Notes under the pieces: model-generated
What the model was told of the DNA's origin: nothing
The model's input: only the letters and a program-made list of their open reading frames with translations
The model's database searches: none
IMG/VR virus record: IMGVR_UViG_3300038305_000057
Span: 1 to 27,490 of that record
Origin: a virus
DNA length: 27,490 bases
Direction: 5' to 3' (one strand)
In this document: positions 12,594-15,167 of the stretch, in pieces
Layout of the letters: the number at the start of each line of letters is the position of its first letter
Position numbering within the stretch: position 1 is the stretch's first letter
Made by a program: the position numbers and the translations under genes

Positions 12594-15167
12594 ATGCTAC
12601 ACGAGTACATCGTCACCCTACACAACAAAGATGACCTTGAGCAATTCTATGATGATATCGAAACCACAGAAAGTGCTGTGCATGTTTACGACTCTGAACC
12701 TTCGTTCCCAAAACGTGCTGTTGAAGTTGCAAACAGAAGAATAATCAGTCGTAACACACATTATATGCTAACTCATGATGAAGCACAAGAGTTAAAGAAC
12801 GACCCTAGAGTATGGGACGTCGAGCTTGCTGAGATTATTGATCTCACGACTAAGCCAACTGGTTGGAAAATGACTAACGAGAAGTTTTCTAAAGATTGGT
12901 TCACAGATGCGACAGATCACAATTGGGGTTTGTTAAGACATAGTGAAGATGCCAATAGAGCCAATTGGGGTTCTAATGGAACTAACACTTACGTGAGTGA
13001 CTTGACGGTTACTTCATCAGGTGAGAATGTTGATGTTGTTATTGTTGATGGTCACATTGATCCAGAACATCCAGAATTTAAACCAAGAGAGACAGCACAC
13101 TATAAAGGCAACCTAGTAAACGACAATACTAATAGCGCATTGTTCGATAGATCAATTAACATTAATGGTTTGAAGATTGTTGTTTCTGGTGTTTCTGGTG
13201 GTCAAATTGCAACGCCAGATGAGTGGGGCAAAAAAGTAGCAAGAGTTGTTGATATGATGATTGATCCAGATGGTAGTAATGTCAACTTGGATGATCAAAA
13301 GAGATTAATCTCTACCCTAAAGGGAGAGCCAGGCACTACTCATGCAGGTTTACCTACAGTACAAAGAGTTGCTTACGGTGGTGGTGGTCAGTATGAACCA
13401 AACTTCTTACTTGATGAAAACATTAGCTCTTATGTAGGATACCAAGGTTTCTTAGATACACACGTCCATAACGATATGGTTTGGTATAGAAACGTTTCGG
13501 GTCCGTCACCATCTGTTGGAGATACAGATGTAGAAGAGGTTGTAGAACACCTCATGCACACAATTCATTTATTTGGTTTACCAGGTGCAGTCGATGGTTC
13601 AGACGTAGCATTAAATTGGGTTGCATCTGAAAACTCTGGTTTTGCCAATACAGCTTTGCATCTTGCGATGTCAGAAGCTATTACTGGTAGTTACTTTGAT
13701 CCTACAGATTATGCGCCTAACTGGAATACAAATGCTGATCAAGCAGAAGTAGCTTATAAAGAATATCTATATCTTCTTAACTTTAATATGTGGGAGATGA
13801 GTGAATTTTGGGATGGTGGCAGTCTTTCGCCAGAATGGGCTGATACTATGAGAACGCCAAGTGGAATTCAAACATACAATCCATTAGGTTACGCTTTGTT
13901 TAACACATACATCGATCCAGTGTTGACAAAACCAGACTTTCCTACATTAAGGAACGTATTCCAAAATAATGACGCAGGTGTTTCGGGGTATGCCCCATCA
14001 TCTCGCGTAAATCAATTCAATTGGTTTTCCTTGACGAATGCTGTAACAGGTGGTGGCAATGGAACATACACATATGACCGCTCTGGTTCTTACATAAATC
14101 CAATAGATGAAGATGATAACAACCATGGCACACACTGTGCTGGTACTGTCGCTGGGAACTCACAGGGGTGGGCTAGGGACGCGACAATCTACAATATCAG
14201 TCCATATAGCTCAAATCCTAATAGCCTCTCATCGTCGCTTATGTGGGACTACATACGTGCTTGGCATAACACTAAGCCAATCAATCCAAAAACTGGACGT
14301 AGAAACCCTACTATCACCAATAACAGTTATGGTTCTTCACTTACAACTAACTACAGTGGAAGCTATACAACTGGTAAAGTGACAAGAGTAAATTATCGTG
14401 GAGTTGACTTCAACCCAGGAAGAGACTTGACAACACAAGAATTGCGTGATCGTGGTTTTTATGCTCCAAATCTTCAAATGGATATTCCCAATTACTTTAC
14501 CTCTCGTAATGCTGATATGCAAGACGCTATTGATGATGGCATTATTATTGTGGCATCTGCTGGTAATGATGCATGGAAAACTGTTAATTCATCTGATCAA
14601 GATTACAACAACACATATAACATGGTTTACAATGGCTATGACTACTCGTGGAACTTACACAGAGGTACAGGATCAGGTGCTGGGTATGCACCAATCATTA
14701 ACGTTGGTGCAACATCTAATGATGTGAATGAAGATAAAGCTAACTTTAGTAACTGTGGTAATCAGGTTGATATATTCGCTGCTGGTGAAGGTATCCAAAG
14801 TAGCTTGCTTTCTGGTGGCATTAATGACCCTAGAGATGACAATTACGAACTAGGTAAGTATGCAGGAACAAGTATGTCAGGACCTCAAGTGGCTGGCGTA
14901 TTGGCGATCCTTGCCGAAAGTTGGCCTAACATGACACAAGCTGAGGCGCATGCATGGGTAATAGATAACGCAAACAGTGATCAAATGGCTGACACTGAAG
15001 CAGATGATCCAATGGATAGAGATAGTCTACAGGGCGCTCCGAATAAATACTTGAGATGGATTAACCAAAGAGCGATTACTGGAACAACTTTTCCACAAAA
15101 AAACTTCAGAAATAGACCAACTTCTGGAAAAACACACCCACGACCTCGTATTCGTAGAAGAGGTTGA
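12594..15167 (+). CDS. subtilisin-family (S8) serine protease with propeptide and large insert, in the baseplate cluster
   Basis: All parts of an S8 protease site are present: D152 in VVIVDGH, H511 in NNHGTHCAGTVAGN, oxyanion N658 in ASAGND, and S760 in GTSMSGPQVAG. Residues 1-85 resemble an I9-type inhibitory propeptide (HEYIVTLHNKDDLEQFYDD ... LTHDEAQELKNDPRVWDVEL). The D-to-H distance is 359 residues, against some tens in ordinary subtilisins; the insert has its own His/Glu cluster (E315, E318, H319, H322, H325) and a Trp-rich part near 395-420. The C-terminus is basic (RPRIRRRG). There is no signal peptide, so it is probably cytoplasmic or virion-associated, able to mature virion proteins or cut host surface proteins. 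It has a GGAGG site and TAATATG spacing to the fibre gene. It is not the prohead protease gp21, which is a different family. Confidence 0.9.
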   Translation: MLHEYIVTLHNKDDLEQFYDDIETTESAVHVYDSEPSFPKRAVEVANRRIISRNTHYMLTHDEAQELKNDPRVWDVELAEIIDLTTKPTGWKMTNEKFSKDWFTDATDHNWGLLRHSEDANRANWGSNGTNTYVSDLTVTSSGENVDVVIVDGHIDPEHPEFKPRETAHYKGNLVNDNTNSALFDRSININGLKIVVSGVSGGQIATPDEWGKKVARVVDMMIDPDGSNVNLDDQKRLISTLKGEPGTTHAGLPTVQRVAYGGGGQYEPNFLLDENISSYVGYQGFLDTHVHNDMVWYRNVSGPSPSVGDTDVEEVVEHLMHTIHLFGLPGAVDGSDVALNWVASENSGFANTALHLAMSEAITGSYFDPTDYAPNWNTNADQAEVAYKEYLYLLNFNMWEMSEFWDGGSLSPEWADTMRTPSGIQTYNPLGYALFNTYIDPVLTKPDFPTLRNVFQNNDAGVSGYAPSSRVNQFNWFSLTNAVTGGGNGTYTYDRSGSYINPIDEDDNNHGTHCAGTVAGNSQGWARDATIYNISPYSSNPNSLSSSLMWDYIRAWHNTKPINPKTGRRNPTITNNSYGSSLTTNYSGSYTTGKVTRVNYRGVDFNPGRDLTTQELRDRGFYAPNLQMDIPNYFTSRNADMQDAIDDGIIIVASAGNDAWKTVNSSDQDYNNTYNMVYNGYDYSWNLHRGTGSGAGYAPIINVGATSNDVNEDKANFSNCGNQVDIFAAGEGIQSSLLSGGINDPRDDNYELGKYAGTSMSGPQVAGVLAILAESWPNMTQAEAHAWVIDNANSDQMADTEADDPMDRDSLQGAPNKYLRWINQRAITGTTFPQKNFRNRPTSGKTHPRPRIRRRG

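What the first reader, a model, noticed from the sequence alone, without database searches (positions are those of the whole stretch)
12594..15167. Subtilisin-like protease with its own propeptide inside a phage baseplate gene cluster
The sequence shows a full Asp152/His511/Asn658/Ser760 set and an I9-like N-terminal propeptide, encoded two bases after a fibre-like gene and just before gp8. The T4 maturation protease gp21 is unrelated and acts in the head. A secreted-type protease with propeptide control but no signal peptide, embedded among tail genes, suggests a virion-mounted or tail-maturation protease. It might trim fibres or baseplate proteins, or cut host surface layers during adsorption.
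Basis: partly seen in the sequence, partly recalled or inferred. Interest (0 to 1): 0.78.

Follow-up and report, generated by a model that had tools for sequence, protein, structure and literature searches.

The report
Phage tail protease carrying swappable domain
A marine T4-like virus of bacteria carries, among its tail-tip genes, an intact-looking digestive enzyme (a subtilisin) with a second protein domain spliced into its middle, and this inner domain has recently jumped between related viruses at that same spot, which points to a quickly evolving tool for attacking the host cell surface.

Summary
ORF 12594-15167 is a subtilase (Pfam S8 E=3e-25; catalytic Asp152, His511, Asn658 and Ser760 in 37 of 37 homologues; predicted fold matches proteinase K-type enzymes, Z about 31). 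It has a weakly I9-like N-terminal domain, no signal-peptide-like start, and lies one base after a gp9/gp10-type fibre connector and just before gp8. Such subtilases are already annotated in cyanophages.

Residues 163-469 are a separate, confidently folded domain (pLDDT 91) inserted between catalytic Asp and His. It has no Pfam or PDB sequence match. It is absent from close relatives (flanks about 90% identical DNA), also occurs in other phage baseplate proteins and in secreted bacterial proteins, and has moved recently: between some other phages the inserts differ by dS 0.02-0.07 while the flanks differ by dS 0.8-1.8, with breakpoints at the domain edges. Its nearest solved folds are zincin metallopeptidases, but the HExxH motif is replaced by an invariant E-H-x-x-H-T-x-H.

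Best reading: a tail-mounted, propeptide-controlled surface protease delivered with its fibre connector as an exchangeable cassette, the insert being a swappable accessory domain. Tail maturation is less likely. The phage probably infects alphaproteobacteria.

The parts
11595..11602 (+). T4-late-promoter-like GATAAATA (one mismatch to TATAAATA) in the gap before the connector gene; would drive connector + protease as one late unit
   Evidence: one-mismatch sites occur at chance level over the window, so weak on its own
11627..12592 (+). gp9/gp10-type fibre connector (321 aa): N-terminus like T4 gp9/10; C-terminal ~135 aa shared by 31 of 33 proteins encoded just upstream of homologous subtilases
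   Evidence: gap to protease one base in the window, about 0-14 bases in nearly all relatives
12582..12587 (+). Shine-Dalgarno-like GGAGG of the protease gene, inside the end of the connector gene
12594..12863 (+). N-terminal ~90 aa, probable I9-type propeptide; the mature subtilase fold aligns from residue ~91
   Evidence: Inhibitor_I9 weak in 6 of 24 homologues, best 0.0057; secondary structure; solved mature enzymes align from model residue 91
12864..13079 (+). subtilase domain, first part, with catalytic Asp152 (window 13047-13049), ending at HPEF (aa 159-162)
13080..14000 (+). inserted domain (aa 163-469): compact fold, nearest solved folds zincin metallopeptidases, HExxH replaced by invariant E318-H319-x-x-H322-T-x-H325 plus E390; absent from insert-less homologues; mobile between phages
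14001..15119 (+). subtilase domain, second part, with His511, Asn658 and Ser760
15120..15164 (+). conserved Arg-rich C-terminal tail ([YF]PR..IRxRG in most homologues), low-confidence in the model; candidate docking peptide (inference)
   Evidence: Arg850 in 37 of 37; alignment; pLDDT about 35
15178..15185 (+). late-promoter-like TATAAATA between the protease and gp8
   Evidence: 4 of 6 exact matches fall in the 1.75% of the window that is non-coding, binomial p=1.4e-6
15211..16854 (+). baseplate wedge subunit gp8, 3' neighbour in most loci
   Evidence: phrog_438 E=1.7e-51; 24 of 28 downstream proteins

Best explanation
The gene encodes a structurally intact subtilase, made late as the second gene of a two-gene cassette with a gp9/gp10-type fibre connector and mounted on the outer baseplate. 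The N-terminal ~90 residues probably fold and inhibit the enzyme until autocleavage, so no export signal is needed: the protein reaches the cell surface as part of the virion. Its most likely job is to cut host surface proteins or surface layers during adsorption. The ~307-residue domain inserted between Asp152 and His511 sits in a loop of the subtilase fold and does not disturb the predicted fold. It is a horizontally exchanged extracellular module with a zincin-like fold and a non-canonical invariant His/Glu site. It most likely gives the protease a target-binding or second surface-acting function that is swapped between phages as hosts change. Shown: subtilase identity, conserved catalytic residues, insert boundaries, presence/absence in near-identical backgrounds, recent transfer, coupling to the connector. 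Inferred: virion mounting in this phage, autocleavage, substrate, function of the insert.
For: Subtilase: Pfam 3e-25; fold Z about 31 to proteinase K-type enzymes; Asp/His/Asn/Ser in 37 of 37; purifying selection, omega 0.05-0.16 for flanks and 0.08-0.14 for the insert against close relatives. Cassette: the connector gene ends about 0-14 bases upstream of nearly all of 38 subtilase genes examined; its C-terminal family is in 31 of 33 upstream proteins; in 8 large viral contigs both are present and adjacent in 5 and both absent in 3; in G006 the pair lies at 152-154 kb, away from gp8 at 23-25 kb. Tail mounting: baseplate neighbours; S-SCSM1 gp144 has an S8 domain with intact catalytic residues plus Laminin_G_3 lectin domains and carries the '(virion protein)' tag, 47 tags against 45 MS-detected proteins. 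Insert: absent in L078/L075 while flanks are 88-92% identical in DNA to L079/L021; single-clade origin in the core tree rejected, p-AU 5e-35, 8 changes; inserts of L098/L099/L100/L106/L133 97-99% identical in DNA with flanks 54-71%, dS 0.02-0.07 against 1.1-1.8, breakpoints at the domain edges; the reverse for window/L012 (insert dS 1.31, flanks 0.32-0.48); insert model pLDDT 91.4; roughly the first 40 fold matches are zincins, Z 7.2 down to 3.7, then Z 3.6 for an unrelated protein. Secreted relatives: lipobox-like starts, InlB-B repeats, PG-binding-like and Ig-like domains.
Against: No proteomics or activity data for this phage. The S-SCSM1 virion evidence rests on matching record tags to a published count, not on the peptide table. 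I9 similarity is weak and a profile of the N-terminus finds no PDB propeptide. Zincin similarity is middling (best Z 7.2, where 7-8 is common for models without a clear match), Foldseek alone found nothing significant, and the motif is degenerate. No coordinates were available to measure active-site geometry or the position of the insert relative to the cleft. Sequences are metagenome contigs; chimeric assembly is unlikely for junctions seen in independent assemblies (L098 = L139; L107 and L134) but was not tested with reads.
Confidence: 0.6

Rival explanations
1. Tail-maturation protease: the subtilase trims the adjacent connector or other baseplate proteins during assembly, as T4 gp21 does for the head.
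For: Encoded in tight coupling (about 0-14 bases) with a fibre connector whose C-terminal domain is strongly conserved, which could be a substrate; late-gene setting.
Against: The gene is accessory: 45 GenBank phage records hold it against 2340 with a gp6 match. The same connector domain occurs with non-subtilase neighbours in S-BM3, Sf-CH1b and in the siphoviruses PSS2 and S-CBS2, so it does not need this protease. The S-SCSM1 homologue carries lectin domains and is tagged as a virion protein.
Confidence: 0.15
2. The inserted domain is itself an active metalloenzyme, so the protein is a two-enzyme surface-degrading device.
For: Zincin-like fold ranking; D294, W297, Y298, E315, E318, H319, H322, T323, H325, E390, E414 and W415 all invariant in 43 of 43 sequences from phages and several bacterial phyla; secreted bacterial relatives; a distant relative reads E-E-x-x-H at the same place and keeps E318, H322 and E390.
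Against: The canonical HExxH is not present; fold match only Z 7.2; no metal or activity data.
Confidence: 0.25
3. The inserted domain is a purely structural or receptor-binding domain grafted on by baseplate-gene recombination, and the subtilase activity is all that matters.
For: It also occurs inside very large baseplate or structural proteins in phages without this subtilase, one of them with four chitin-binding-type modules (L121); one copy per genome in 7 of 8 large contigs; accessory status.
Against: The strict invariance of polar and metal-ligand-type residues over long distances is more than a plain structural domain would need.
Confidence: 0.35
4. Intein or other self-mobile element in the subtilase gene.
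For: Precise, recurrent insertion at one site with recent horizontal spread.
Against: No intein ends: residues at the junctions are F162/K163 and S469/S470 with no terminal His-Asn before Cys/Ser/Thr; no homing-endonuclease match; the same domain is an ordinary fixed part of many other proteins; transfer is explained by homologous recombination at the conserved flanking codons.
Confidence: 0.02

Closest known systems
Subtilisin-like proteases annotated in T4-like cyanophages (S-CREM1, Sf-FR1, S-H38, S-WAM2, S-RSM4, P-SSM2 PSSM2_297)
   Same: Same family, same catalytic set and related N-terminal domain; most sit right behind a fibre-connector gene
   Different: About 550-610 aa and without the inserted domain; roughly 34-42% identical to the window protein
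S-SCSM1 gp144
   Same: Subtilase domain with intact catalytic residues in a tail-gene cluster; tagged virion protein
   Different: 1411 aa, extended by lectin-type domains instead of an internal insert
Syn33_094 / S-RIM2 protein in the gp9-X-gp8 slot
   Same: Same genomic slot and a domain 47% identical to the insert
   Different: No subtilase; domain embedded in a 1721-aa baseplate protein with a YHYH match
PPEP (Pro-Pro endopeptidases) and other zincin metallopeptidases of clan MA
   Same: Best structural neighbours of the insert; a Glu in a C-terminal helix that could correspond to the third ligand as in PPEP-3 (PMC12828418)
   Different: Those carry HExxH; the insert has E-H-x-x-H-T-x-H and no detectable sequence similarity
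Tripeptidyl-peptidase II (from own knowledge, not tested)
   Same: Subtilase with a large insertion between catalytic Asp and His
   Different: Different kind of insertion, eukaryotic cytosolic enzyme
Ongoing domain shuffling in phage receptor-binding proteins (PMC10684548)
   Same: Recent exchange of protein fragments in tail proteins
   Different: Here a whole domain nested inside an enzyme fold, between two catalytic residues, is exchanged repeatedly at one site

Membership tests
Peptidase family S8 (subtilases) | Significant match to the family profile | tested here: met
   PF00082 E=3e-25, 89.5 bits against cut-off 21.8
Peptidase family S8 (subtilases) | Asp/His/Ser triad and oxyanion Asn in order with family motifs | tested here: met
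   D152, H511, N658, S760 in VDGHID, NNHGTHCAGT, ASAGND, GTSMSGP; 37 of 37 homologues
Peptidase family S8 (subtilases) | Subtilisin fold | tested here: met
   Z 31.4, rmsd 2.7, 277 of 282 residues of keratinase 5wsl
Peptidase family S8 (subtilases) | Proteolytic activity | not testable with these tools
   needs expression and assay
Inhibitor_I9 propeptide | Profile match to I9 | tested here: inconclusive
   Window E=0.019 (16.1 bits, cut-off 21.2); 6 of 24 homologues, best 0.0057; no PDB propeptide found by profile
Zincin metallopeptidases (clan MA), for the insert | Zincin fold | tested here: inconclusive
   Roughly the first 40 VIA-align rows are zincins, Z 7.2-3.7, then Z 3.6 unrelated; Foldseek E not significant
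Zincin metallopeptidases (clan MA), for the insert | HExxH motif | tested here: not met
   Invariant EHxxH (E318-H319-L-M-H322) in 43 of 43
Zincin metallopeptidases (clan MA), for the insert | Third metal ligand C-terminal to the motif helix | tested here: inconclusive
   E390 invariant in a later helix; geometry not measurable here
Zincin metallopeptidases (clan MA), for the insert | Metal binding and peptidase activity | not testable with these tools
   needs purified domain
Intein | Terminal splice residues (N-terminal Cys/Ser, C-terminal His-Asn followed by Cys/Ser/Thr) | tested here: not met
   Junctions F162/K163 and S469/S470, no His-Asn
Virion-mounted tail enzyme | Encoded among baseplate or tail genes and coupled to a tail component | tested here: met
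Virion-mounted tail enzyme | Present in the virion | tested here: inconclusive
   Only through tags on a homologue, S-SCSM1 gp144

The most novel reading that the evidence does not exclude
The insert founds an undescribed family of extracellular zincin-fold enzymes with a Glu/His-based site (E-[H/E]-x-x-H ... E), used by marine bacteria as secreted lipoproteins and by T4-like phages as a mobile tail module. Inside the subtilase it makes a nested two-enzyme surface weapon whose inner enzyme is exchanged between phages.
Probability: 0.2. Interest if true: 0.8.

Novelty: new variant of a known kind. Interest (0 to 1): 0.55.

Why it matters
Proteases on phage tails are little studied compared with polysaccharide-degrading tailspikes. 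Here a complete subtilase cassette sits in the baseplate of a marine T4-like phage group. The same place in its fold repeatedly accepts a ~300-residue domain that has passed between phages very recently, with the enzyme's catalytic residues kept. That gives a natural series of matched pairs with and without the insert, and with swapped inserts, for testing what the domain does to substrate choice or host attachment. The domain itself is an unannotated, high-confidence fold shared with secreted bacterial proteins, with a strictly invariant, unusual His/Glu site.

Tried and rejected
Sequence-profile searches of the insert against Pfam and the PDB found nothing. Foldseek against PDB and BFVD found nothing significant for the insert; only the second-look aligner pointed to zincins. 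The shared connector domain was first thought specific to subtilases; it is wider, occurring in siphoviruses and before unrelated proteins. The idea that the N-terminal 90 aa is a docking domain shared with other connector partners was tested and not supported: S-BM3, Sf-CH1b and S-SCSM1 gp140 partners lack it, whereas the S-CAM1 partner turned out to be another subtilase. A cyanophage origin of the window was considered and judged unlikely. Intein was considered and rejected. T4-late-promoter scanning with one mismatch is at chance level; only exact sites are enriched in gaps. Literature searches for phage-tail subtilases found no study of their function.

Full report
WHAT IS THERE. The window is a 27.5-kb virus fragment holding a T4-type baseplate cluster: tail-tube cap, gp5-like hub, gp6, further wedge proteins and gp8. 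ORF 12594-15167 encodes 857 aa. A GGAGG box at 12582-12587 lies inside the end of the previous gene, and the ATG follows its stop codon by one base. Pfam gives Peptidase_S8 at 3e-25. The model (mean pLDDT 79.5) aligns to proteinase K-type enzymes at Z 30-31, from residue 91 onward. The first ~90 residues resemble I9 propeptides only weakly.

THE INSERT. Pfam's S8 match runs from 168 to 798 although the profile has only 288 positions. In cyanophage homologues of 550-570 aa, tblastn gives two pieces with the middle of the query unmatched. Alignment with full-length relatives shows that insert-less proteins read HPEFAVNPDGSGG-SRVxQ-NWF, where the window has HPEF, about 307 other residues, then SRVNQFNWF. 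The insert spans aa 163-469, between catalytic Asp152 and His511. Folded alone it gives pLDDT 91.4 and pTM 0.91, so it is a real domain. It has no Pfam or PDB sequence match.

WHERE ELSE THE DOMAIN OCCURS. The domain is inside large baseplate or structural proteins of other phages, including Syn33_094 in the same gp9-X-gp8 slot. It is also in contigs binned as Opitutales, Flavobacteriaceae, Actinomycetota and Gammaproteobacteria, often as small secreted proteins with lipobox-like starts or with InlB-B repeats, PG-binding-like or Ig-like domains. In GenBank phages, records with the domain (85) and with this subtilase (40 at E up to 1e-5, counted) add up to the union of 125, so no isolate record appears to hold both. 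In G006 (182 kb) the subtilase lacks the insert and lies at 153 kb, while the domain sits in a 1022-aa protein immediately upstream of gp8. Seven of eight large viral contigs have exactly one copy; the eighth has none.

MOBILITY. L079 and L021 (with insert) and L078 and L075 (without) have flanks 88-92% identical in DNA. On a tree of the subtilase core, insert presence needs 8 changes (5-8 in bootstraps, at least 3 forced), and a single clade is rejected (p-AU 5e-35; long branches are present). On a tree of the domain all subtilase inserts form one group (92/88) among phage copies. This fits one origin followed by spread. The inserts of L098, L099, L100, L106 and L133 are 97-99% identical in DNA while their flanks are 54-71% identical. 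For the pairs measured among these five, dS is 0.02-0.07 in the insert and 1.1-1.8 in the flanks; L015/L141 shows the same pattern (0.02 against 0.82-0.84). Identity begins and ends at the domain edges. For the window and L012 it is the reverse: flanks dS 0.32-0.48, insert 1.31, which indicates allele replacement. Several junctions recur in independent assemblies (L098 = L139; L107 and L134), which argues against chimeric assembly. Homologous recombination at the conserved flanking codons is the simplest mechanism (inference).

NATURE OF THE INSERT. In the VIA-align list roughly the first 40 rows are zincin metallopeptidases (PPEPs, other M34, collagenases, M4, M30, M1), Z 7.2 to 3.7; the first clearly unrelated row is at 3.6. 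Z of 7 is middling, so this is a lead and not proof. Zincins are defined by HExxH (PMC3890501; PPEP-3 in PMC12828418). The insert instead has E315-V-V-E318-H319-L-M-H322-T-I-H325, with E390 in a later helix; these Glu and His residues are invariant in 43 of 43 sequences. A distant relative (first half of L145's protein) reads E-E-x-x-H there and keeps E390. Taking E318 and H322 as the two motif ligands and E390 as the third is my inference; no coordinates were available. It is therefore not filed as a zincin.

CASSETTE AND SETTING. In nearly all of 38 subtilase loci the upstream connector gene ends about 0-14 bases before the subtilase. Thirty-one of 33 connectors share a C-terminal family (phrog_15343), and 21 have a recognisable gp9/10-type N-terminus. 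Downstream is gp8 in 24 of 28. Connector and subtilase are both present and adjacent in five and both absent in three of eight large contigs, and in G006 they lie together elsewhere. In other phages the same connector domain precedes non-subtilase proteins (S-BM3, Sf-CH1b) or another subtilase (S-CAM1). It therefore behaves like a fibre tip with exchangeable cargo. A conserved Arg-rich C-terminal tail is a candidate docking peptide (inference). Exact TATAAATA late-promoter-like sites are enriched in gaps (4 of 6 in 1.75% of the sequence, p=1.4e-6), one just after the subtilase. This fits connector and protease as one late unit.

VIRION EVIDENCE. S-SCSM1 gp144 contains an S8 domain with intact catalytic residues and lectin-type domains and is tagged '(virion protein)'. 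The record holds 47 such tags by my count, against 45 proteins detected in that virion by mass spectrometry (PMC9602691). This is good but indirect evidence.

HOST. The window's gp6 is closest to Sinorhizobium phage phiM12 (40%) and close to Caulobacter phage Cr30 (34%), ahead of cyanophages at about 33%. No psbA was found in six related contigs, two of them over 180 kb. Two homologous contigs lie in a Rhodobacteraceae MAG. An alphaproteobacterial host is likely (inference).

CONCLUSION. Subtilases in this position are already annotated in cyanophages. What is new here is the nested, repeatedly exchanged domain and its unusual invariant site.

Noticed in passing
window 5435-7147: Tape-measure-like protein whose C-terminus matches Peptidase M15 (9e-7) and phage endolysin families: a second peptidase in the same tail cluster, probably a peptidoglycan-cutting tail enzyme.
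   Followed up: no
L145 6687-8900: Opitutales protein with two copies of the insert-type domain, the first very diverged with E-E-x-x-H in place of E-H-x-x-H; may be a route to the family's ancestor.
   Followed up: partly
L121 7290-16109: A 2940-aa phage protein carrying the insert domain and four chitin-binding-type CBM_5_12 modules.
   Followed up: no
L176 1-921 (S-BM3, SBM3_00202): Annotated peptidase S8 inside a protein of about 2650 aa, a few genes before the connector-type gene: another subtilase architecture in this phage group.
   Followed up: no
L172 3859-6114 (S-CAM1): Annotated tail fiber protein is a diverged subtilase (Pfam 3.2e-10).
   Followed up: yes
window 916-945: Two exact TATAAATA sites facing opposite ways between divergent genes, a likely divergent late-promoter pair.
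   Followed up: partly
L139 and L141: Two contigs of one Rhodobacteraceae MAG (Water_Bin34) carry different subtilase-with-insert phages; probably phage contigs binned with a host.
   Followed up: no
window 22394-23704: 436-aa ORF without a PHROG match at E up to 0.01 in the tail cluster.
   Followed up: no
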